Under the pieces are notes generated by a model that was not told the DNA's origin, made no database searches, and saw only the letters and a list, made by a program, of their open reading frames with translations. The translations under genes were made by a program, and so were the position numbers. A stretch of 64,000 bases of DNA from Argentina anserina (Eukaryota; Streptophyta; Magnoliopsida; Rosales; Rosaceae): positions 20,398,001 to 20,462,000 of the forward strand of contig NC_065873.1 in assembly GCF_933775445.1 (NCBI RefSeq), given 5' to 3'. Positions 31,887 to 48,810 of this stretch are shown here, piece after piece; position 1 is the first letter of the stretch; the number at the start of each line of letters is the position of its first letter.

Positions 31887-32624
31887 GTGTGTGATTTAAA
31901 ATCAACGGTATCTAGAGGGAATAATAAATACTTTATTACCTACATAGATGATAGCACGAAATATTTCTATGTGTATTTGCTAAAATGCAAGAGTGAGGCT
32001 ATAGAGAAGTTCATTCTCTATAAAAATGAGGTTGAGAACCAACTCAACAAGAAAATTAAGGCACTAAAAAGTGACCGAGGGGGTGAGTATGAATCGCCAT
32101 TTGCTGAGACTTGTGCTCAGAATGGGATTATACATCAAAGGACTGCTCCATACTCACCACAATCCAATGGTGTAGCAGAACGCAAAAATCGTACTCTAAA
32201 GGATATGATGAATGTTATGCTACTCAGTTCTGGGATGCCACCCAACATGTGGGGAGACACGATTCTCACGGCAAATTATCTTTTAAATAAGGTGCCCAAA
32301 AAGAAAGAAGAGAAAACTCCATATGAGTTATGGAAAAAGAGAAAACAATCCTACAAATACTTAAAAGTTTGGGGATGTTTGGCAAAAGTGAAAATTCCTA
32401 AACCTAAAAAGGTGAAGAATGGGCCTAAAACGGTTGATTGCATCTTTATTAGATATGCACATAACAGTTCGGCTTATCGATTCCTAGTCCACGATTCGAA
32501 TATTCCTGAAATCCATAAGGATACGATAATGGAATCGAGAAATGCATCTTTTTTTGAAAATGTATTTCCATGGAAGTCTAGAGAAGAATTTAATTCTTCT
32601 AAATGGGCACCTGAAGACAACTGA
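31887..32624 (+). pseudogene. Copia integrase core
   Basis: A 245-codon frame begins in the integrase core ([15 protein letters not shown] sequence). [10 protein letters not shown] supplies the second catalytic Asp, and [13 protein letters not shown] the Glu. It ends at a TGA before the acidic linker (repeated Glu-Ser near 32650-32690), so it is separated from the RT frame by a stop. Confidence 0.85.
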
Positions 32625-32750
32625 GCCAAAACTAATGATGCTCAGGATCAAGAATCTGAGTCTGAGTCCGAATCTGAGTCTGAGGTTGAACCTAGACGAA
32701 GTAAAAGGGTAAGGACCGCAAAGTCCTATGGACCTGACTTCCTGTCATAT

Positions 32751-34307
32751 ATGGTTGAAGGTGATCCCCGTACCTTCAAAGAGACAGTTAGCTCTACTGA
32801 TGGACCTTTGTGGAAAGAAGCAATCAAAAGTGAGGTTGACTCCATCATGCAAAATCACACTTGGGAATTAGTGGATTTGTCACATGGATGTAAGCCTTTG
32901 ACTTCCAAGTGGATTTTCAAAAAGAAATTAAAAGCTGATGGGTCAATAGACAAGTACAAGGCTAGACTTGTTATTAAAGGCTATAGGCAAAAGGAGGATT
33001 TGGTTTATTTTGACACTTATTCTCCTGTGACGAGAATAACATCCATACGGATGGTACTTGCAAGTGCAGCGTTGCACAAACTTGAAGTACACCAAATGGA
33101 TGTAAATACGGCTTTCTTGAATGGAGATGTAGAAGAAGAAATCTACATGGAACAGCCAGAAGCTTTTTCTGCTCCTTCTCAGAGTAAGAAGGTGTGCAGA
33201 TTAGTTAAGTCATTATATGGCTTAAAACAAGCACCAAAAAAATGGCATGAGAAATTTGATAATGCCATGATCACCAGTGGATTTAGAATAAATGAAGGTG
33301 ATAAGTGTGTATATGTCAAAGACACTGAAAATGGATATATCATTCTATGTCTGTATGTGGATGATATGCTTATCGTTGCTCCCAACGATAAGATGATCAA
33401 GTCTACTAAGGACATGTTGAATTCTAAGTTTGACATGAAAGATTTGGGACTTGCTGATGTCATTTTAGGAATTAAAATTACGAGAACATCAGAAGGGCTA
33501 GTGTTGAGTCAAACACACTATGTGGACAATATTCTTGGGAAATTTGACAAGGAAGGTTCTGGAATTGTCAGAACTCTTGTAGATATGAATTTACATTTGT
33601 CCAAGAATAAATGTGAAAGTGTTTCTCAATTAGAGTATTCAAGAATAATTAGGAGTCTAATGTACTTAACAAGTTGTACAAGACCAGATCTAGCTTATGC
33701 GGTTCATAAGCTAAGTAAGTACACGAGTAATCCTAGAGCTATGCATTGGCAAGCGATTGGAAGAGTACTCAAATACCTAAGGTATACTCATACCTATGGG
33801 TTGCACTACACATCATACCCAGCTGTTATAGAAGGGTTCACTGATGCGAACTGGATATCTGACATGAAAGACTCAAAGTCTACTAGCGGATATGTATTTA
33901 CGCTAGGGGGTGCAGCCGTGTCCTGGAAGTCCTCAAAACAAACAGTTATAACTAGATCCACAATGGAGTCTGAGTTTGTAGCACTAGACAAATGTGGGGA
34001 GGAAGCAGAATGGTTACGCCAGTTCATAGAGGACATTCCTAGATGGACAAAACTTGTGCCTGTGATTGGTATACATTGTGATAGTCAATCTGCAATTAAC
34101 AGGGCACAGAGCAAGATGTATAATGGTAAGTCTAGACACATTCGTCGAAGACATAATACCATTAGACAACTACTCTCAACTGGAGTTATCTCTATAGACT
34201 ATGTAAAGTCTAAGGATAATATTGCTGATCCTCTAACCAAAGGGTTAAACAGAGAGTTAGTTGAAAAATCATCGAAGGAAATGGGACTAAAGCCCATTGG
34301 AAATTAA
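32751..34307 (+). pseudogene. Copia reverse transcriptase and RNase H
   Basis: A 518-codon open frame. It starts with the Copia RT motif [20 protein letters not shown], has the active site YVDD near residue 202, and ends in RNase H ([23 protein letters not shown]). This part is uninterrupted, but it lacks the upstream domains in frame. Confidence 0.9.
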
Positions 34308-35894: not shown

Positions 35895-36001
35895 ATATCA
35901 TTATCTGAGGGGTACTTTAATTGATGAAGATTAATTCTGTGGATTACATAGAACCTCATACTAGCTATCTACAATGACTTAATTAATCTCCTGCGAGTTA
36001 A

Positions 36002-37827
36002 TCAAATTGCTCTCTGGAAGAGTACTTTGTCAATGTGCTGGCTTATGATTTTAGGGTCACAGTAGGCCAAATAGTAGAAACTCCTCGCCACTGTGAAAAA
36101 GCTTTGCTTAATTAAGGATTCCACATCCGAAGATGTTATCACCAATTCCACAAGCTTTTGCATGTCTGATTCTATTGCCTGCGTTGTCAGGTTCATTTTC
36201 GTTCCGCAGGCCCCATTATCATTTACCTTAAACAAAACAAAACAAATTTGTCAATGAAACAAATTCATCATTTAGCCCTAACCTATCGTTACAGTACGTC
36301 GAAAGGAAAAAAAAATAGTCCTTATCAATGAAACATCTAACCTTGTGCTTTTGGTTTAGGCAAGAACGAAGTTGATTGCAAACTTTGTTAGTCAGCTTGA
36401 TAAGCTCGTCATGATCTGGATGAGTATTGGACAGCAACCCCCGAGTTAGTGAAATGCCAGCGGTTTGGTTTATTGTTTCTACTAGCAGCTCGGCTTCATC
36501 TTGGTGCCGTCCTCCTTTCTCTAGCCATTTCAGTAGACACTGTTCCCACTATATTTAATCGAAAAATTATGTCGAAAACACAAAACAATATTAGTGGAAC
36601 AATGAAATAGGAAGTTATAGTTATCTGGATCATGATCTAGAGGTTGCACTCGAATAAGAACTGTATATGCAATTATGCACTCACAGTTTGACGCAGAGAT
36701 TGGGATATATCTTGGCCATGTAGCACCATGGTGTCCAATGAGAGTTGGCTTAACGTCGCCAACAAAGCCCCCACAATTCCTTGCGCAGCAGTCTTGTTCT
36801 TATTCGACCTCCTATAAGGTACATGAACCACATGAAGATGATGATATATAAAACTCTTTACACAGCTATCTGCATGCAAATGCATTCGAGTCTGTGCTAG
36901 TCAGTTATATTATTACCTTGCAACTTCATACTCTCGCATATTGGAAAGGTTTTTGAACTCATCAACAAACGCCTTCTTATCTTGATGAGAAGGTTCCCCC
37001 TTAAAATTAGACTCGATTGTATCAACTAAGGAGGCCGTCTTAGCCCATGCGAGTCGTTCATTTGCCCTTTCAGGTTCAAAGATACTTGCTGCGGCAACAA
37101 AATAAGCCGTGAGGAGACTCTTTTTGCTTAATCCATAGTCTCCAAGTTTCCATTCTCCGTACCACCTGCATTACACATGAGATTGATATGAAATTAGTTT
37201 CATTATTCACTGGTTATATATAAACTGTGCATGGTTGAACTAGCTCAAAAAGAAAAAGAATAATTTGACCACTAAGGAATTGAGGTTTTGTTTGATTACT
37301 TTTGAAGGTTGTCCCATTCACTGAGATGTAGTGCTTGGCAATTGTTGAAGTCTACCTTTGCCAGTTCAAGATACAAATTATTGTTAACATAGGGCATACT
37401 GGAAGTGAGAGAACAAAGAACGAAACAAACAGTCGTTAGAATCAAAGTTTTAATAATAAGATTGCAAGAATAAATCATAAAGAGAAGCTGTCATGCACCA
37501 TTTTAATTATTACCTAAATTTATACATACAGTACTAGGTCCAAAACATTGGACAAGAGAAAGAATTATACACCATTAAAATTAGAGAAGAAATGAACAAA
37601 AATAATACCTGTAGAGAGTCTTGCCAATCCATACGTCATCTGCACCACCATACTGTTCGATATAGACTTTAGTCTCCAGTCGAGGTAAGCTCGCATACCA
37701 TGGAACGTCAAGTGCATATCCCACCTGATTTTCAATATTCAACACATTCTCGATCAGTTTAGAAACTAGCTCGCATATCTGATTTAATATGATCACTCTT
37801 AATTAGTTTTTGTTAATAGCAACTGTT

Positions 37828-37864
<37 letters not shown>

Positions 37865-40800
37865 GGCTTCTTGGCTGCGGAGGTCCGCACCAATGGATTT
37901 GGTGCGGATTTCCATTTTTGCACCACTTTCTGATCGAATTTCATCATTTTCACCGTTTAGTAACTAAATAATATTGTGTAGATTATTTTATAAAATTTAT
38001 GCTAATTTGATGATTGTTAAGGCCTTCAAAATCAAAAACCAAATAGATAAAATCGAATTTTGTCAAACATGAACCGTTCATATTTTATAAAAAAAAACAC
38101 AATTTGAAAGGCCTTAACGATTACCAACTTAGCTGAAATTTTACAGAAATGATATACACAATATACTATCTAGATAGTAGATGATATATCATAAAACGGT
38201 GCAAAAATGGAAATCCGCTCTAAAACTATTGGTGTAGACCTCCACACCTGAGAAAAAAAAAAATATATATATATATATATATACCTCTCCGGGCAAGTCC
38301 TTCATTATGATCCACTTGTCTAGAAGCTCATTTGAAGCTTGCTTCTCCCTAAGGAACTTTGTTGAAAACTCCTTAGCGTCATAGAGGATCTTCTCTCCCG
38401 GCAAGGCCACCTGACTTGCCCTATACAAGTTGTACATTCCAGTCACAGCCTGGTTTGATTGTCCGGCGGAGCCGAAAAACTCGTCCCCTTTCTTGAAATG
38501 CTTAAACACATCTGCACACCACCCATGTCACCGGCCAAATTTAATCAACTAAATCATAAATCTGATTGATTATATATTCCGTTCGCTAAAAAACAAAACA
38601 CCAAAAATGGGACAAATTAAGCTTTAACGTATTATGCTTATGAGTTATGACGTGTCGTAAAACAAACTCACCAGCTGACACTTTGAGCCCATGCAATCGG
38701 AGCAGTCTGAATCCCATCGCTGTGTCATCGATGTCCTGAACCTCTGAGTTTCTCGCCCAGCCAATCCCTTTCTCAGTCCAGAACCTTCATGATATCAAGG
38801 CCAAAAACTAATTAGAAAACTAGCTAATAGATACGGTTGTGAACAAAGTTGTCAGTAAATACTGTATATCCATACTTGGCTACGTAGTTCATACATTCCT
38901 TAATCTCCGGATCAAAGTATCTGTACAATCCCAACCTCTGCAACCGATCCACTGCCCAAATGTGTTCGAACAAATCGACTGGGTACACATTAGGGACTGG
39001 AAAGCAAGACAGAAAGAATATCAAGTCCCTTGCTGCAGTTTGGCTTAGACAATTGACATGCATGTACTAACTAAAACCAGCATACCTCCTCCATTGAACT
39101 TGCGGACTGCTCTTGACAGATAGGATATGCAGTTTTGGTCCTTGGTCTGCTGAGCCCCGTAGGCAGTGGACGCCGGAGAGAACAAGAACGAGCCGTCTTG
39201 GCATTGGAGTTTCAGAAGCTTTTCCCAGTCGAGACCTGCCATCCCTTCCATGCTATAAAGAAGGGTTGTGGGTACTCTGTGCAGTATGTCCTTGGGTATC
39301 CTGCTTCCACACCCACATGAGTTCATCATTATGCACGTACGGTTATAAAGACGGGGAAACCACATTATGCATAGTTGCTTGGATAAGCCGATAAGGTTTA
39401 CTGTTCAGACAACTTCAATGAGAAAAAAAATTACTTGGTTAGTTTTAGGTTTCTGCAATCATAGATCTTATGCAACACAGGAGAGTCGTCAGGAACTTCA
39501 AGGTTTAAGCTCCGAGCTATTTCCAAAACAGAGGGAAACGCAACCTCGAACCCTATAGTCATGTGTTCGATATTCTCGTCTTCCAGCTTGTTTAGGTTTT
39601 TCTTGAAAAACCTCATTCCTGTAGTATACGAGTAATTATCAGAATTTTCTTAAGTATTTCGAAGTATATATGTGGTATTTTAAATTATTAATATCACAAC
39701 AAATTTAGTATCATTATGGTAAATAGCGTGTTGTTTTGGATAATTCTAGTTCTAATAGGTGTAATTACTAAGCCTATAATATTTTACATGATTATGAACA
39801 AATAATTGTTATTGTGGTAAATTTATTTAGTTATTTGTAAATATAAAAAACACATATTATAACTTTATTTTCAATATTGTAAATTTAGTTCAATACCATT
39901 ATAATTTTATTTTTTTTAAGTTATAATTAAGAGTAAGATATATCTAAGTATTGTTGAAGACCCAGCAATAATCAACTTGATTAATAATTAAATATTATGG
40001 CCTCGGCCTTAAAGAAGATGACAAAAGAATTTGGCAGTGGAAATACTTGCATCAATCCCGGGATTCCCGGCCTTACCTTTGTCGCATTTGTCGGGGTGGA
40101 GATTCCACGATTTCAAAGCAACGACGCAGGCGAGGGTGCTAATGATTCGATCGTGGGCGGAGTAGAAGTCCTCGAAACCCCAAGAGCCATCTTCGAGCTG
40201 GTTGTAGGCAATCCATTCGAGGCTGGAAGGGAACTGCGGGGAACCACTACTATTGACGTCTTCGACCAAAGCAACCCAGGCGGTGTCGTACGCTGATACG
40301 CTGATCTCCCCGTCCTCCATAGAAGACAGCATGGACTTGATGGATTCCACATGCTCCTTGATGATCTCGGTTGTTGCAGAGTCGTCGTCCTAAATTAAAG
40401 AAGAAAGAAAATAATAATAATAATAATAAATTAAAATGCATCAGATCAAATATGGACTGAATCAACAAAACTTACAAAATTTAAATTGTATCTTAGAGTA
40501 CGTAATTAATCAATTAAGGACCTTGATAGGAGGAGCCTCTTCATCTTGTTGTGTGTCATCCCCCAGAATCGAAGGATTCTTATGCCACTTATTAATCACT
40601 GGTTGAAAGACGTCTGGACAAAGATTGGAGTGTGAAAATTTATTTGATACATATGGTATCCGTAGGCAAGATTTTACCTGATCTGAGGAAAAGGTGGAAA
40701 GGAAAGGAATCAAATACTTACCTCGAGTGCGAGATTTGGAAACCGCATTGCAGATTGAAGGAAGAACCCTTCTGTCTTCAGCTCCGAACAACCAAAGGTC

Positions 40801-43800
40801 TGTTAACAATGGTAAAGATTGGTATATGACAATTTAGCTTTATTTTTATTAGACGTTAACTTAGGTTAGGTAACATCACTAACATGTTTACTTGGGTGAT
40901 ATAACATGTTTACTAGCTAGGTGTAATAATTTATTATTAGTCGTTATTGGTGTTAGTAATTTATTCCGTTGTTGAAGGTTAATAATTTATTATTAAACAT
41001 TATTGTGGATCTGTAATTTATTTTAAGGATTAGTGTTTGTTGGCGGAGTCCGGCGAAGTTTTAATAAAGTGTTATCTCTCATCAACCTTTTTTTTTAGTG
41101 TTTAGATAGATAAGGCTATAATAGTCTTAAAATTATTCAAAACTATAGTTGTTGTACTTTTGGTCAAATAATATTATACTCTTAGAGTGAATTGTTACAT
41201 TGTGAATTGTTCCATTCAAATAGGCAATAAGGGAGCCAAATTAGTATTAAATGGTCATTTTTCGAGGAATTTTACAGTCCTCTCAGGGAACCGTGTGGCA
41301 ATGTCTAGTGACACTCCCTTCCAATCACCATTTGACACTTATGATTTAATTTTTTAAAAAAATCATATTTAAGCTATTTTATCAAAAACTATCTTGAGTT
41401 TCTTTTTAAAATCTTACACCCCACAGTCTCACACTCTAATATCCTAAACTCTAAAACATTATACCCTATATCCTAAACTCTAAACTCTTAACCCAAAATT
41501 TTAGTTCAAAATTATCAATACCCATGAAAGTCATTTCACAAATAATAAAAATGTGTAAAAATTATAATTTTGGTGTAATAAATCTATGTGTCAAAATATA
41601 ACAGTTGAGGAGGATTACTAGACATTACCACATGGTTCTCCGGGATCACTGAAATTTGTTGTCATTTTTTCTAAAGACAATTTATTATGTAAAAAGTTAC
41701 ACTAGTGCCCAACTCAATAAATCACCAAAACAATATTACATGTATAAATGACTGCACCATTAATATTTTATGTAATATGTCGACTTTATTACATATTAGG
41801 GGTGGCACTTAAGACTGAAAAACCGAAAATCGAACCGAAAAAACTGGATCGAAATCGGAAAAAAACCGAACCAAACACGAGAAAAACCAAACCGAACCGA
41901 ATTAATCGGTTTGATTTCCGGTTTGGGCACATAAGAAACCGAACCGAACCGAAAAACCAAACTATTCATAAAATAATGTCGTTTTAAGTCTATCTTACCG
42001 AATATTTGATTTGATTAATGTGATTTTAGGTTTATATTATATATAATTATATGTTTCTCTTTTGTAGTGTTATATATGTATATATAATCATCTATGTTTA
42101 TATGTATGCCCATATATGTATGTTTCAAATAAGTTTGCTAAAACAAACATATATATACATATATATATATATACAAGCGGATATGTAATTACTAAATCCG
42201 CCTCAATATGAAGCAGCTATATGAAGGAAACTTCTCGGGATCGATCGACACTAGTCGATATGATTGATATATATATATATAGTGACCTTGTAAAAATTTC
42301 ATCATATTCGGACCTTATTTAACCGTCGGAATTTCCGGTAAACCGAAATCAATACTAATATGTCATAAGGGAAGACACATTACCAAAATACGAACACCAA
42401 AAGTCGTTTGCATATCTGAAATCACCTAATTTTTGTCATCAATTGTATGCGGTCGCACCAAAGAAACCAATTTGGCAAAGCCCCGGTCAATGAGGATTTT
42501 AATATGTCAAAACGCCTCTTTTTTAGTTGACCGTTGGTATGAACGGTCAAATTATGTCCAAAACGGACGAAATTTTTACGGGGTCCCTAAATATATATAC
42601 AGATCACATCTGCTGGTGTCGATTGATCATATTTTGAACTAGAGTGGCGATCTCCTAAGTGTCAACTAATGTATCATAACCTTTATATTAGGTTTAAAAT
42701 AAAACTATCGCATTATGAAGCGGCTATATGAAGGAAACTTCTCGGAATTGATCGACAGCATCCGATATGATCGGTATATATATTTAGTGATCATTTTCAA
42801 ATTTCATCCAATTCGGACCTCGTTTAACCTTATGAATTTCTGGTAAATCAAAAACAACACTAATATACCCTAAGGGAGGACCCATTACCAAGATGCGAAT
42901 GAGAAAAGTTGTTTACATATTTGAAATCACATAATGTTTGTCATCGATCGTGCGTGGTCGAAACAAGGAAACTCATTTGGCAATGCCCCGGTCAATGAGG
43001 TTTTATTATGTGAAAATGCCTTTTTTTTTGTTAATCGTTAGTACGGACGGTCAAACTATGTTCAAAATGGATGAAATTTTCACATGGTCCCTAAATATAT
43101 ATGTCGATCACATCTATTAGTGTCGATCGACAATATTTTAAAACTAGAATTAAAAAAATATAAAAAAGAATTAAAAAACGGAAAAAAAAAACGAACCGAA
43201 CCGTTCAGTTCGGTTTTTAGTTTGACTTGTTGGAGAACCGTGAACCGAACTAAACCGAACCGAAGTTCAATTTCAATTCGGTTTCTGGTTTGAGCCCAAA
43301 ACCAAACCGTTTAAACCGAATGCCACCCCTATTACATAGGGGCTGGATTTTGGGAATATGAGCACTTTAATTAGTGTCTTTATTTTCCCTCTTTTTTGCA
43401 TTGTGCACTCTATACTGAGTTTAATAATAATTATTATTATTACTAATTTATTGATATATATATATATATTTACAGTTTCCCGTCTCAGTCATATATTAAT
43501 GCGAGCACATTAAGTTGAACAATTTTAAATGCAAGTTTAGAAAGAGTTTTTTAATTAGATATTGTAAAGACTACCTTGGTGATGCAGACGAATTGTGACA
43601 AGTTTATGAAGGATTGTTTGAATTAATATTTCGGGAAAGTAATATACACTAGTACAGACGATGAAGATTGCTTTGCAAAAAATTCAATGTATAAAATCTC
43701 TTAAGACTATTTTCACCAATATAGACGAACCAGTATATTTGGTTAGTAGTGTGAACAATGAGGAAAACTTTTTTACTATTGATTTCTGTGCCCGGTTTGG

Positions 43801-43955
43801 TCTATTTTTCTGGCTACGCTATTAAGAGTGATAGATTCAATTATCAAAATGGGGAGAGACTTACCAGGTACATGTCTAGGTTGATCGTAGTTGGAGGAGG
43901 GAGAAACAGAAGGTGGGAGAGAGAGAAAGAGGTGGTGGGTGGAATGAGAAGACAT
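36002..43955 (-). CDS. CPS: Copalyl diphosphate synthase-type class II diterpene cyclase, 15 exons
   Basis: Exons in transcript order: 43865-43955, 40722-40799, 40522-40613, 40077-40389, 39435-39618, 39086-39300, 38876-38996, 38672-38784, 38285-38511, 37609-37724, 37300-37398, 36917-37165, 36685-36811, 36342-36548, 36002-36226. All introns are GT-AG, every phase matches, and the total is 2457 nt (818 residues), the usual length. Residues 1 to about 60 are Ser- and basic-rich, a likely plastid transit peptide. Landmarks are SAYDTAW (119-125), LEDGSWG, PNV (Asn327) and the catalytic acid motif DIDD (382-385); no class I DDxxD is seen. The family protonates geranylgeranyl diphosphate to a bicyclic diphosphate such as ent-CPP, the gibberellin precursor. 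Odd point: the catalytic His of the LHS motif is Tyr268 (LYS). His336, matching the Mg-sensitive His of gibberellin-type enzymes, is kept. The product is therefore uncertain. Confidence 0.9.
37865..38252. mobile_element. Foldback MITE between TA tracts, in CPS intron 9
   Basis: The left end has AGGTCCGCACCAATGG and GCGGATTTCCATTTTTGCAC; the right end carries the inverted counterparts GTGCAAAAATGGAAATCCGC and TTGGTGTAGACCTCC. The arms continue inward (TTAAGGCCTT pairs with its reverse). It lies between (TA)n runs at 37843-37864 and 38262-38282 and has no ORF. TA-tract targeting resembles the Micron MITEs of rice. Confidence 0.7.
41797..43331. mobile_element. Non-autonomous hAT element in CPS intron 1
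   Basis: The ends are TAGGGGTGGCA and TGCCACCCCTA, with flanks TTACATAT (41789-41796) and TTACATAG (43332-43339), an 8-bp duplication with one mismatch. Both arms are rich in AACCGAAC words. The centre holds two copies of the 503-507 bp tandem repeat also seen at 19801-20768. No transposase. Confidence 0.8.
42210..43140 (-). repeat. 507-bp tandem repeat inside the hAT element
   Basis: Units start at GAAGC(A/G)GCTATATGAAGG (42210 and 42717). They are reverse complements of the units at 19801 and 20304. Confidence 0.8.
43865..43955 (-). other. CPS: Exon 1 of the CPS gene (transit peptide)
   Basis: It encodes 30 residues from the ATG at 43953-43955 (MSSHSTHHLF ... PRHVP) plus one base, then a GTAAGT donor. 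The start has A at -3. The single leftover G joins AC of exon 2 to give Asp and continues into LWLFGAEDRR. No in-frame ATG exists at the 5' end of exon 2 (frame open only back to a TAA at 40834-40836), so this distant exon is needed to start the protein. Confidence 0.75.
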
Positions 43956-44224
43956 GATGATTATGTTGGTGTGTGGGCGGAGTGTGTTGTTTAATTTGGG
44001 TGTAGAGAGTAGAGGAAGCAGGTCAGCCTCAGAGTAGGCCGGTGGTGGTGGTGGCCGGGATTAGAGGAGATCGAGCCTAGCTTGAGAGAGAGAGAGAGAG
44101 AGAGGGGGGGGGGAATGAAATGAAATGAATTGAGAGATACGGGAAATGTTGGAAGAGGCTTTTAGGAGTACAGGGAAGGAAGCAAACAGACAGAAACGAC
44201 TTCCCAAGAGATTCCCGCTAATAG

Positions 44225-44420
44225 GTGCATGGTATCTATCTCTTCAACACACTCAGACTTCCTTTGTATATACCCTCAGTATGGCACTCCGGTTCTTTTC
44301 CTTCTTTTTTTTTTTTATAGAGAAAGACGTTCCGGTCCCTTTTCCAAATTCGTAGATTCTTTCTAGCCTCTCATGCATTAGGTGCATGGCATCATATCTC
44401 TTCAACACACTTCCTCTCTG
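44225..44420. repeat. Duplicated CPS-upstream segment (second copy 52147-52262)
   Basis: About 120 bp (44265-44385) recur at 52147-52262, both starting ATATACCCTCAGTA and ending TCTCATGCATTA. A shorter internal duplication (GGTGCATGG...CTCTTCAACACAC) occurs at 44224 and 44379. Confidence 0.75.
44262..44276 (-). promoter_or_regulatory. Possible TATA box of the CPS gene
   Basis: On the minus strand GGGTATATACAAAGG lies about 310 bp upstream of the ATG. Between them is a (CT)n/C-rich tract (44084-44108, read as GA/G on the plus strand), common in plant 5' UTRs. The transcription start is not demonstrated. Confidence 0.3.
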
Positions 44421-44940: not shown

Positions 44941-47900
44941 CTAGTGTTCCGATAAACGACGCATGCCAATGCTCTTCACATGTTTCACAAAAGTAGATTT
45001 AGGCAAAGACTTGGTGAACAAATCCGCAACATTGGATTCTGAACTCACTTGATTGATCTGAACATTCAAGAACTTCTGTTGTTGAACGTTGTAGAAGAAC
45101 TTAGGCGAAATATGCTTGGTGTTGTCTCCCTTGATGAAACCTAACTTTGTCTGCTCTATGCAAGAAGCATTATCTTCATAAATGCACGTAGGTTGATCAG
45201 TTGTAGAGACTAATCCACAAGAATCATGAATATGGCGAACAAGTGATCGTAGCCAAACACATTCTTTAACTGCTTCATGGAGAGCGATGATCTCCGCGTG
45301 ATTCGAAGAAATAGCAACAAGAGTTTGCTTTGTGGATCTCCAAGATATCGCTGTATTCCCAATGGTGAACACATAACCGGTTTGAGAACGAGCCTTGTGA
45401 AGGTCAAAGAGGTACCTTGCGTCGGCATAACCAACTAACAAGTTGTTTGGAGTCTTTGCATCGGGAGAAAGAGCTGCACGGGACCGGTTGCTGCTCTCGG
45501 CACCGCGCACGGTCTCCACGCCATGGCGGCTGGCGGCGTCGCTGCGGCGTACAGCGGCAAGGCCGGGGTCGGCGACGTCAGTGGTGTGGGGAGATACCGT
45601 GGCGGTGTTCTCTCTGCAATAGGGGTAGAAAAATCCCATGTCAAGGGAACCTTTCAAGTATCGAAACAAATGCTTGATTCCATTCCAATGACGTAGCATA
45701 GGCGCGGAGCTAAATCTAGCTAATAAGATCACTGCGAAAGATATGTCCGGTCTAGTACATTGAGCAAGATACAATAGTGCCCCAATCGCACTAAGGTATG
45801 GAACTTCAAGACCAAGAACTTCTTCATCATCCTCTTTAGGACGGAAGGGATCCTTCTTGATATCTAGACTTCGGACGACCATGGGAGTAGACAATGGACT
45901 GCATAGATCCATATTGAAACGTCGAAGCATCTTCTGCGTGTAATTTGACTGATGCACTAAGATGTCATCGGCCCTATGCACAAGCTCAAGGCCGAGACAG
46001 AATTTCGTCCTCCCTAGGTCTTTCATCTCAAATTCCGACTTCAAATAAGACACGGTCTCTTCAATCTCATCAAGAGTACCGATTATGTTTATGTCATCAA
46101 CGTAGACCGCAACGATGACGAATCCGGAATTTGTCTTTCGTATGAACACGCATGGGCATAGTTCATCATTCTTGTAACCCCTTCTCACCAAGTATTGATG
46201 CAACCGATTGTACCACATTCTTCCGGATTGCTTTAACCCGTACAATGAACGACGTAGTCTGACTGCATGAGCACTCCGTGGTCTGGAGGCACTTGATGGA
46301 GGTAAAGGTAGTCCCTCTGGAGCTTTCATGTATATCTCTGCGTCAAGATCCCAATAGAGATAAGCTGTGACCACATCCATAAGCTGCATGTTTAGTCTTT
46401 CGGACACTACCAGACTAATAAGGTAGCGGAAGGTAATGATGTCCATAACAGGAGAATAAGTCTCTTCATAGTCAATACCAGGTCGTTGTGAGAATCCTTG
46501 CGCCACGAGTCTTGCCTTATACCGCACAATATCGTTCATCTCATTACGCTTACGAACGAAGACCCATTTATGTCCAACAGGTTTGACATCTCTTGGAGTC
46601 AATTCAACCTTTCCGAAGACTTCTCGCTTCGCTAATGAGTCAAGTTCTACCTGGATTGCTTCCTTCCACTTCGGCCAATCTGCTCTGCGTTCGCATTCAG
46701 CTACAGAGCAAGGTTCAACGTCGTCTTCAGATATGATCTCATGTGCGACAGAATAAGCGAAAACGTCATCAATGCATGTAGTGGCTCGGTTTCGAACCGA
46801 CTGCTCACTTGTGTAGTTCACTGAGATTTCGTTGTTCTCTGGAATCAAACAAGGTTCCATAGCGTCCCACGGTAACACTTGAGTTGATTCATGGACATAG
46901 CTGTAATCAGAGACAACTTCATACGATGGTGATTCATCGTTGATGACGCGCTGTGCCTTAGTCATTCGTTTCTTTCTAGGTTTTGAATCCCTAGAGTTTA
47001 TCGGTCTCCCCCTTTTTCTTTGAGGAGCCGAGGCCGAAGCTGCTCCATGCCGGGCCATCTCGGCATCGTCGCCACAAGGGGCGCCGACAACACCACGGCG
47101 TACGGTGGTGCCGCCGCCGGCCTCCGTCCCACTGTCAGGGGCGGTGCCAACGTTGCTAGGTCCAGGAGCTTGTTTTCCACGCCCGTATTTCGGGACATCC
47201 AACCGTGCCGGTATGTTCGCAGCGGGTATGTTTGATCTCGTCACTTTAGCAATATCTACAAAGCCGTCGGGCATCGAATCCGCGACTTTCTGGAGGTCAA
47301 TAATGCGTTGCACTTCTAACTCGCTTTGAGCAGTGCGGGGATCATAATGAGACATAGTGGGGACACACCACGTCAATTTCTGACGTTCATTTGGAATGAT
47401 AACATTCCCATCTCCCCCTAACGACGGGAAGCATGTCTCATCAAAGTGACAATCTGCAAATCTTGCAGTAAAGAGATCTCCGGTGGTTGGTTCTAAGTAG
47501 CGGACAATCATTGGGGAATTATAGCCAACATAGATACCTAATCGTCTCTGAGGACCCATCTTAGTACGCAGCGGAGGCGTAATAGGCACATAAACGGCGC
47601 AACCAAAGATGCGTAAGTGTGAAATATTGGGTTCGTAACCAGTTACCATCTGGTACGCACTAAATGCTTGGTTAGCCGCGGGTCGGAAACGAATAAGTGT
47701 CGCTGCATGCAACACTGCATATCCCCACGCAGAGACCGGCAGGTTAGTACCCATAACCATTGCCCGAGCAACAAGCTGAATAAGTTTGATGGTAGCCTCT
47801 GCTAGACCGTTCTGTGAATGAACATGAGGAACGGGATGTTCAACTTCGATCCCAATAGACATGCAGTAATCATCAAAAGTTTTGGAGGTGAATTCTCCAG

Positions 47901-48810
47901 CATTATCCAAACGAATGGATTTGATAGGATAATCGGGGTGGTGAGCCCGAAGTTTGATGATCTCAGCTAATAACTTGGCAAATGCAGCATTCCTTGTGGA
48001 TAGAAAAGCAACGTGTGACCAACGCGTCGATGCATCAACCAATACCATAAAATATCGAAAAGGTCCGCATTCTGGTTGAATAGGTCCACAAATATCACCT
48101 TGGATACCTTGTAAGAATGGAATGTTCTCGGTTGAAGCCTTAGCAAAAGAAGGACTTCCTTGAAATTTAGCAAGAGAACAAGCTTTGCAAAACGAGCGAT
48201 AGGCATCAGAAATTGCCATGGAGGCATTTGAAAGCACGGGAGGCATCACAAGCTCTTGTGAAGCAGGGGATGCCGCCACCGACGGCATGAAAGCCGTGGA
48301 GCTGCCGAGTGAGGCATGCTCGGCCACACCATGCGGTGCATGGGTAGGCACGGCCTCACCGTGCGGAGCACGGGTGTGGTGATCCTCCAATCGCTTCCGG
48401 GACTTGAAAAATGGATGACCATGTGAATTATTAAGAATTCTAATCATCATATCACGTCCAGGGTGCCCGAGACGGGCATGCCAAAGCATATAAGAGTCCG
48501 AATCACAAAAGTTGCGTTCAACCGCATATGATTCAAAGATCTGAATGGAAGTAAGATACAAACCATTCCCAAGACTCTTCATCTTCTCTAAGATGCGGCG
48601 ATGGCCTGCTTTCTCAGAGGTAACACAAAGATATTCATCTCCATTCTCAACATAAGTATCGAGGTGAAAACCATTGGCACGTATGTCCTTAAAACTTAGC
48701 AAGGTGCGGGGAGACTTCGGCGCATAAAGAGCGTCTACGACGTTAAGAGTCGTACCATTAGGCCATGAAAGAAGATGTGCCTCTTCCTTGAATGATGGAT
48801 TTCGAGCCAA
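44941..48810 (-). CDS. Copia pol: integrase, reverse transcriptase, RNase H
   Basis: A 1289-codon frame. The integrase zinc finger uses H111/H116 and C208/C211, with 91 residues between the second His and the first Cys (about 30 is usual). The integrase core has IQGDICGP (Asp238), RLDNAGEF (Asp about 301) and NGLAEATIK (Glu about 338). RT has LDSLAKREVFG-type entry motifs and YVDD at 903-906; RNase H has GYADARY and SNHAEIIALHE. GC-rich low-complexity inserts separate domains near 48250-48370, 47020-47200 and 45470-45600. The protease precedes it in another frame (48811-48925), split off by one frameshift near 48790. Confidence 0.85.
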   Translation of the reverse strand: MARNPSFKEEAHLLSWPNGTTLNVVDALYAPKSPRTLLSFKDIRANGFHLDTYVENGDEYLCVTSEKAGHRRILEKMKSLGNGLYLTSIQIFESYAVERNFCDSDSYMLWHARLGHPGRDMMIRILNNSHGHPFFKSRKRLEDHHTRAPHGEAVPTHAPHGVAEHASLGSSTAFMPSVAASPASQELVMPPVLSNASMAISDAYRSFCKACSLAKFQGSPSFAKASTENIPFLQGIQGDICGPIQPECGPFRYFMVLVDASTRWSHVAFLSTRNAAFAKLLAEIIKLRAHHPDYPIKSIRLDNAGEFTSKTFDDYCMSIGIEVEHPVPHVHSQNGLAEATIKLIQLVARAMVMGTNLPVSAWGYAVLHAATLIRFRPAANQAFSAYQMVTGYEPNISHLRIFGCAVYVPITPPLRTKMGPQRRLGIYVGYNSPMIVRYLEPTTGDLFTARFADCHFDETCFPSLGGDGNVIIPNERQKLTWCVPTMSHYDPRTAQSELEVQRIIDLQKVADSMPDGFVDIAKVTRSNIPAANIPARLDVPKYGRGKQAPGPSNVGTAPDSGTEAGGGTTVRRGVVGAPCGDDAEMARHGAASASAPQRKRGRPINSRDSKPRKKRMTKAQRVINDESPSYEVVSDYSYVHESTQVLPWDAMEPCLIPENNEISVNYTSEQSVRNRATTCIDDVFAYSVAHEIISEDDVEPCSVAECERRADWPKWKEAIQVELDSLAKREVFGKVELTPRDVKPVGHKWVFVRKRNEMNDIVRYKARLVAQGFSQRPGIDYEETYSPVMDIITFRYLISLVVSERLNMQLMDVVTAYLYWDLDAEIYMKAPEGLPLPPSSASRPRSAHAVRLRRSLYGLKQSGRMWYNRLHQYLVRRGYKNDELCPCVFIRKTNSGFVIVAVYVDDINIIGTLDEIEETVSYLKSEFEMKDLGRTKFCLGLELVHRADDILVHQSNYTQKMLRRFNMDLCSPLSTPMVVRSLDIKKDPFRPKEDDEEVLGLEVPYLSAIGALLYLAQCTRPDISFAVILLARFSSAPMLRHWNGIKHLFRYLKGSLDMGFFYPYCRENTATVSPHTTDVADPGLAAVRRSDAASRHGVETVRGAESSNRSRAALSPDAKTPNNLLVGYADARYLFDLHKARSQTGYVFTIGNTAISWRSTKQTLVAISSNHAEIIALHEAVKECVWLRSLVRHIHDSCGLVSTTDQPTCIYEDNASCIEQTKLGFIKGDNTKHISPKFFYNVQQQKFLNVQINQVSSESNVADLFTKSLPKSTFVKHVKSIGMRRLSEH

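What the first reader, a model, noticed from the sequence alone, without database searches (positions are those of the whole stretch)
39240..39270. Diterpene cyclase with Tyr in place of the catalytic His
In the CPS gene the motif usually LHS reads LYS: codon TAT at residue 268. With a constant offset of 5 this lines up with His263 of Arabidopsis CPS (PNV Asn327 with Asn322, DIDD 382 with 377). That His and the Asn act as the base pair that ends the ent-CPP reaction. In enzymes with an aromatic residue there, rearranged or clerodane-type products such as kolavenyl diphosphate have been reported. The enzyme may therefore serve specialised diterpenes rather than gibberellin.
Basis: partly seen in the sequence, partly recalled or inferred. 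Interest (0 to 1): 0.85.

Follow-up and report, generated by a model that had tools for sequence, protein, structure and literature searches.

The report
Young diterpene cyclase with swapped base
In silverweed, a recent extra copy of the plant-hormone gene for ent-copalyl diphosphate synthase has lost the histidine that ends the normal reaction and a nearby phenylalanine, so it probably makes a different (clerodane-type) diterpene precursor while its sister copy keeps the hormone job.

Summary
The gene is an intact 15-exon class II diterpene cyclase on the minus strand (43955-36002, 818 aa). Codon TAT at 39257-39255 is residue 268, aligned with AtCPS His263. The genome is that of silverweed, Argentina (Potentilla) anserina.

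New here:
(1) A sister copy about 100 kb away (L009) keeps CAT (His). The change is one base, in the window copy only, after a young duplication (dS about 0.09).
(3) In a set of 127 homologues plus the window copy, all nine enzymes with Tyr/Phe at the His site (seven inferred origins) lack this Phe. Of 359 conserved columns, none but the His column itself also shows 9 of 9. After phylogenetic pairing this is suggestive (5:0:2, p=0.0625), and grand fir AgAS, outside the set, is an exception.
(4) Strawberry CPSs of this type make ent-copalyl diphosphate. A diverged strawberry cyclase without the His-Asn dyad makes a clerodienyl diphosphate; a search found no gene of that type in silverweed.

Most likely the window enzyme makes a rearranged, clerodane-type diphosphate (about 0.6). 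Relaxed decay of a spare copy is the main rival. It is a new member of a known kind.

The parts
36002..43955 (-). Class II diterpene cyclase gene (copy A), 15 exons, 818 aa plus stop
   Evidence: Exons 43955-43865, 40799-40722, 40613-40522, 40389-40077, 39618-39435, 39300-39086, 38996-38876, 38784-38672, 38511-38285, 37724-37609, 37398-37300, 37165-36917, 36811-36685, 36548-36342, 36226-36002; PF01397 and PF03936 over cut-off; 873 bits to AtCPS 3pya
39255..39257 (-). Codon TAT, Tyr268, in place of the catalytic His (AtCPS H263; 'LYS' for 'LHS')
   Evidence: sister copy has CAT
38468..38473 (-). Codons GGC TCC, Gly416 and Ser417, in place of Cys and Phe of the FxCF motif (AtCPS C411, F412)
   Evidence: sister copy TGC TTC; Ser at 412 in 0 and Gly at 411 in 1 of 119 homologues
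38876..38996 (-). Exon 7 with PNV (Asn327, second member of the His-Asn dyad, codon 38991-38989) and FEHIW (His336, regulatory His of gibberellin-type enzymes, codon 38964-38962), both kept
38672..38784 (-). Exon 8 with the DIDD catalytic acid motif (residue 382 onward, from 38735), kept
35897..44250 (.). Outer limits of the blocks shared with sister copy B (C2:20327480-20332621): the gene plus about 0.1 kb 3' and 0.3 kb 5'; flanks beyond are not shared
   Evidence: blastn
40843..43818 (.). Repeat-rich stretch of intron 1, about 3 kb, not shared with copy B (whose intron 1 is 579 bases)
   Evidence: Gap between shared blocks; internal repeats; B exon edges
37868..38254 (.). MITE-like insert in intron 9 with 67-nt inverted arms, not shared with copy B

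Best explanation
The window gene (copy A) is a young, intact duplicate of silverweed's ent-copalyl diphosphate synthase. It has lost the His half of the His-Asn base (His268Tyr) and the FxCF active-site motif (Cys416Gly, Phe417Ser), but keeps the acid DIDD, PNV, the regulatory His and the substrate-lid DKW. Shown: the sequence changes, their derived state, and the intact reading frame. Inferred: without the ordered water held by His-Asn, the bicyclic cation formed by DIDD is not deprotonated at C-17. Hydride and methyl shifts follow and the proton is removed elsewhere, giving a clerodane-type diphosphate (ent-kolavenyl or a stereoisomer), possibly with some 8-hydroxylated product because the pocket is larger. 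Copy B keeps LHS/PNV/FCF and presumably supplies ent-CPP for gibberellin.
For: Intact frame, 14 introns with GT and AG ends, DIDD/PNV/FEH kept. Tree: A is sister to B (SH-aLRT 100) within a His-bearing Rosoideae clade. AtCPS H263Y gives ent-KPP with good specificity (review); SdKPS F255H reverts to ent-CPP; a Tyr is reported in the KPP synthase TwTPS14. In strawberry, FaCPS1-4 on chromosome 2 with the dyad make ent-CPP; FaCPS5/FvrCPS5, about 70% identical and without the dyad, make cis-cis-clerodienyl diphosphate. All 9 of 9 aromatic-263 enzymes of the set, A included, also lack Phe at 412. Purifying selection on A: 30 derived amino-acid changes against about 60 expected if neutral (P of 31 or fewer 0.015) and 0 stops (P 0.04), assuming half of the silent changes fall on A.
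Against: No product, expression or allele data. Many F/Y-bearing enzymes do not make KPP. F412 substitutions in AtCPS were not among those reported to alter product. A has more changes at conserved sites than B (14 v 4, p 0.03), including Trp679Cys, which fits relaxed constraint. Even a dyad-bearing strawberry copy, FaCPS7, showed no activity, so intact motifs do not prove function. No clerodane of silverweed is known to me: of the 20 papers listed of 1,042, three held clerodane and Potentilla, one clerodane mention each (listing only).
Confidence: 0.6

Rival explanations
1. Copy A is a spare copy under relaxed constraint, with poor or no activity; the His loss is one of several hits on conserved sites and has no product of its own.
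For: 14 A-derived v 4 B-derived changes at sites conserved at 70% or more (p 0.03); Trp679Cys, Cys373Gly; about 3 kb unshared stretch in intron 1, upstream region beyond 0.3 kb not shared with B.
Against: No stop, frameshift or lost splice site; fewer amino-acid changes than the neutral expectation; catalytic acid, lid and dyad Asn kept; overall A v B rate difference not significant (30 v 20, p 0.20).
Confidence: 0.25
2. Copy A still makes mainly ent-CPP (or the 8-hydroxy product), with another group or water as base.
For: The LHS/PNV pair is not required for ent-CPP in some enzymes; regulatory His kept as in gibberellin-type enzymes; loss of bulk at 412 could admit water (inference).
Against: In AtCPS itself Tyr at this site redirects to ent-KPP.
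Confidence: 0.11
3. Assembly or allele artefact: A is a collapsed or misplaced haplotype, or Tyr is a rare allele.
For: Tetraploid plant, one haplotype shown.
Against: Shared blocks stop at the gene, flanks differ, introns 1 and 9 differ; about 4% coding divergence; QV 55.3, HiFi.
Confidence: 0.04

Closest known systems
Silverweed copy B (P0001, NCBI 'ent-copalyl diphosphate synthase 1-like'); strawberry FaCPS1-4 (ent-CPP synthases, PMC13368613)
   Same: 93% identity to B, 85% to P0003, a Fragaria x ananassa protein that I take to be of the FaCPS1-4 type; same exon structure (B); DIDD, PNV, FEH
   Different: B and P0003 keep His and FxCF; A has Tyr and Gly-Ser
Strawberry FaCPS5/FvrCPS5, cis-cis-clerodienyl diphosphate synthase (PMC13368613)
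   Same: Rosoideae TPS-c enzyme without the His-Asn dyad; P0014 (F. vesca, Tyr; probably this gene, my inference) also lacks Phe412
   Different: Separate clade, P0014 74% identical to A, Arg at the regulatory His; FaCPS5 is on chromosome 3D; A is an independent change in the other clade
Salvia divinorum SdKPS and Tripterygium TwTPS14, kolavenyl diphosphate synthases (PMC5441855)
   Same: Aromatic residue for the catalytic His
   Different: Other lineages; SdKPS has Ser402 where ent-CPSs have Cys (the C411 site by my numbering), and its residue at 412 is not listed as divergent
AtCPS H263Y mutant (described in PMC11795633)
   Same: Same His to Tyr change with Asn322 kept
   Different: Laboratory mutant keeps FxCF; A has lost it

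Membership tests
TPS-c class II diterpene cyclase | DxDD acid motif | tested here: met
   DIDD at 382
TPS-c class II diterpene cyclase | No class I DDxxD motif | tested here: met
   No DD..[DE] in the protein
TPS-c class II diterpene cyclase | Falls among CPS proteins in a tree and by alignment | tested here: met
Gibberellin-type ent-CPP synthase | LHS and PNV dyad motifs | tested here: not met
   LYS, PNV
Gibberellin-type ent-CPP synthase | FxCF active-site motif | tested here: not met
   FFGS
Gibberellin-type ent-CPP synthase | Regulatory His (AtCPS H331) | tested here: met
   His336; also found in some specialised enzymes
Kolavenyl/clerodienyl diphosphate synthase | Aromatic residue at the His site | tested here: met
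   Tyr268
Kolavenyl/clerodienyl diphosphate synthase | Makes a clerodane-type diphosphate from GGPP | not testable with these tools
   Needs an enzyme assay
Kolavenyl/clerodienyl diphosphate synthase | Member of the Rosaceae clade that seems to hold the strawberry clerodane enzyme (FaCPS5 type) | tested here: not met
   A groups with B, Rosa sericea, Fragaria and Rubus rows, not with P0006/P0008/P0009/P0014

The most novel reading that the evidence does not exclude
Position 412 (Phe of FxCF) is a hidden partner of the catalytic His in angiosperm ent-CPS-type cyclases: in nature the enzyme leaves the ent-CPP outcome when both change, in either order, and silverweed carries a natural near-minimal pair (copy B: His+Cys+Phe; copy A: Tyr+Gly+Ser). 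In A, Gly-Ser opens the pocket so that the cation is turned and a product not made by AtCPS H263Y results. Silverweed would thus have re-evolved a rearranging cyclase from its hormone gene, a FaCPS5-type gene not having been found in the assembly.
Probability: 0.3. Interest if true: 0.68.

Novelty: new member of a known kind. Interest (0 to 1): 0.5.

Why it matters
Copies A and B differ at 53 of 817 aligned residues, among them exactly the residue known to switch class II cyclases, so nature has supplied a close pair for testing how a hormone enzyme becomes a specialised one. The column scan adds a testable claim: a second residue, whose substitution in AtCPS was not reported to alter product, is changed in all nine aromatic-263 enzymes of the set, though not in grand fir AgAS. 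If real, the pair would improve prediction of product from sequence and might explain why Tyr or Phe at the His site does not always give kolavenyl diphosphate.

Tried and rejected
Considered and rejected: a third CPS locus (C3:2697672, pattern hit) shows no cyclase in its frames. Haplotypic duplication: rejected because the shared blocks end at the gene. Automatic names '(-)-kolavenyl diphosphate synthase TPS14/28-like' were not used as evidence: several such rows have His (e.g. P0057, P0059), and P0241, named kolavenyl diphosphate synthase, shows His and Phe; that row stands for a cluster of 9 and the name may belong to another member. A clustered pathway (P450 or KS beside the gene) was looked for only by eye in an output-cut list of open frames; none was recognised, and this is not a test. 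No structure was predicted, because the tool returns no coordinates for distances.

Coupling 263/412, results against: independent pairs 5 same, 0 opposite, 2 without difference, p 0.0625, not significant; the raw Fisher p 1.6e-9 (on 119 rows) ignores relatedness; the product of per-lineage rates is a rough figure on rows I chose, one for each inferred origin. The scans dropped P0001, P0005 and P0013 (duplicate of B and two over-long models); the tree rows dropped the same three. Conifer AgAS has Tyr with Phe; rice syn-CPS has His with Leu; Grindelia 9b99 has Tyr with Tyr (the plant name of 9b99 is recalled). SdKPS probably keeps Phe (412 is not listed in its table of divergent residues). Five His rows lack Phe (P0009, P0016, P0024, P0095, P0108). 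The Rosa and Fragaria origins may not be independent, since P0009 with His could be a reversal. The list of active-site positions was chosen from papers after seeing A. The protein database lists only the best 120 rows a search, so the set leans to close relatives.

Papers: PMC12410513: passages and all of its Results and discussion; PMC11795633, PMC5441855, PMC13368613, PMC6349103, PMC11162522: passages only. Potter 2016 (PMC4768914) is not held and is known here only through the others. That the 263/412 link is not in print rests on one search, whose listing shows F412 only in PMC12410513, and on that section, where I saw no mention of it; the supplements were not open to me.

It moved the Gly416-Ser417 codons by one base and the distance between the copies (101.7 kb between them); the odds of rival 2 were lowered from 0.13 to 0.11 only so that the four sum to 1.

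Full report
What is there. The region is a plant gene on the minus strand. Splicing 15 exons gives 818 aa without stop or frameshift; all 14 introns have GT and AG ends. The protein matches AtCPS (3pya) at 873 bits and the two terpene synthase Pfam models above cut-off. Residue 268 is Tyr (TAT, 39257-39255), PNV is at 326, DIDD at 382.

Whose genome. The sister copy's protein equals P0001 but for three residues at one exon edge. P0001 is named 'ent-copalyl diphosphate synthase 1-like isoform X2 [Argentina anserina]' and lies on a contig of 30,213,577 bases against 30,212,500 for C2 here. The silverweed paper reports 237 Mb, seven chromosomes, HiFi reads, QV 55.3 and a tetraploid plant shown as one haplotype (passages).

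The sister copy. On the same strand, with 101.7 kb between them, lies copy B, 818 aa, intact, with LHS, PNV, FEH, DIDD and FxCF. A and B differ at 53 of 817 aligned residues and 102 of 2451 aligned coding bases; dN 0.030, dS 0.092 by NG86. The His codon is CAT in B and TAT in A. The shared blocks lie within 35897-44250, with different flanks, and introns 1 and 9 of A hold long unshared stretches. This is a duplicated gene, not a leftover haplotype.

Polarity. With four Rosoideae proteins as outgroups, 30 differences are derived in A, 20 in B and 3 are unresolved. His268Tyr, Cys373Gly, Cys416Gly and Phe417Ser are derived in A. At sites where the older residue is conserved at 70% or more, A has 14 and B 4 derived changes (p 0.03), so A evolves with looser or different constraint; the overall rates do not differ significantly (30 v 20, p 0.20). 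A is probably not a neutral relic: about 60 amino-acid changes and 3.6 stops are expected for 22 silent changes, against 30 and 0 (P 0.015 and 0.04). The figure of 22, half of all 44 silent changes, is an assumption.

The site in relatives. Of 119 homologues (P0002-P0120), 111 have His, 7 Tyr, 1 Phe. On a tree of 37 chosen rows A and B are sisters (100) within a His-bearing clade with Rosa sericea, Fragaria x ananassa and Rubus; seven changes between His and aromatic are needed (again seven on 127 rows).

The second site. AtCPS F412 is one of seven active-site aromatics; it is kept in 40 of 41 gibberellin-type plant CPSs and in 103 of 153 verified plant class II enzymes (PMC12410513). Substitutions there are not among those the paper names as altering product. 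A has Ser here. In A and 127 homologues (B and P0001 left out), the nine rows with Tyr or Phe at 263 have Ser, Tyr, Tyr, Tyr, Ile, Leu, Cys, Val and Ile at 412, while 114 of 119 His rows have Phe. In the scan set of 127 rows (A and B in; P0001, P0005, P0013 out; 9 aromatic, 118 His), 359 columns are conserved at 85% or more in the His rows. Besides 263 itself only 412 deviates in 9 of 9; the next has 7 of 9 and the mean is 9%. With one row for each of seven origins, the other 227 columns conserved at 95% or more reach at most 3 of 7. The Corylus row P0083 deviates at only 0.4% of these columns, yet has Phe263 and Cys412. Independent pairs give 5 same, 0 opposite, 2 no difference (p 0.0625). 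In Juglans and Fragaria the His-bearing neighbours (P0108, P0009) already lack Phe412, which would fit a change at 412 coming first. Outside the set, 9b99 (labda-7,13E-dienyl diphosphate synthase; Tyr, Tyr) fits, grand fir AgAS (Tyr, Phe) does not, rice syn-CPS has His with Leu, and SdKPS is probably an exception. I take this as a strong lead, not a rule.

What neighbours make. In strawberry FaCPS1-4, on chromosome 2 with the His-Asn dyad, make ent-CPP, at very low abundance; FaCPS7, also with the dyad, showed no activity. FaCPS5 and FvrCPS5, about 70% identical to the others and without the dyad, make cis-cis-clerodienyl diphosphate (passages). P0014 (F. vesca, Tyr; 74% identical to the Fragaria row P0003) sits in a clade with Rosa P0006 and P0008; that it is CPS5 is my inference. 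A search of the silverweed genome with P0014 at E 1e-8 gave 23 matches: only A, B, the KS pair on C3 and one weaker place on C4. Nothing of this kind lies in 71.5 kb around the KS pair. So the silverweed assembly seems to lack the older clerodane-type gene, while A has changed the same catalytic position independently.

How it likely works. The DIDD acid starts bicyclisation as in AtCPS. The His-Asn pair helps hold the water thought to take the proton. With Tyr the cation should persist and rearrange, as in AtCPS H263Y, which gives ent-KPP. Ser417 and Gly416 should widen the pocket; the effect on stereochemistry or water capture is open. Product: inferred, not shown. The kept regulatory His does not decide the matter, since the kolavenyl diphosphate synthases of Salvia divinorum and Vitex agnus-castus keep it.

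Judgement. Observation confirmed; interpretation plausible and sharpened; enzyme class known. The worth lies in the close natural pair and in the testable second site.

Noticed in passing
L010 (C3:7966.3-7970.1 kb) and L011 (C3:7988.0-7991.9 kb); proteins P0121 and P0126: Two ent-kaurene-synthase-type genes about 22 kb apart. P0121 has Asn in the PIx product-switch motif (GPNV), P0126 keeps Ile (GPIV). Of the 120 listed KS-type proteins (these two included) 112 have Ile; Rosa sericea P0123 also has Asn and Fragaria P0122 Val. Strawberry FcKSL5 gives pimaradiene-type products, so P0121 may be a pimaradiene-type enzyme (inference).
   Followed up: partly
window 31887-34307 (+) and 44941-48810 (-): Copia-type retrotransposon open frames (integrase and reverse transcriptase words) on both sides of copy A; read by eye from the ORF list.
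   Followed up: no
window 37868-38254: MITE-like element in intron 9, 67-nt arms 81% complementary, not shared with copy B.
   Followed up: partly
window 42193-43142: Two copies of a stretch, about 505 bases apart and 80-82% alike, inside intron 1.
   Followed up: no
G000 C4:11691027-11691311 (-): Weak match (45%) to the early part of a CPS (P0014 residues 93-184); perhaps another three-domain terpene synthase.
   Followed up: no
P0019 (Malus baccata): A CPS-like protein with Tyr at the His site and DIDS in place of DIDD in the alignment, so perhaps without class II activity.
   Followed up: no
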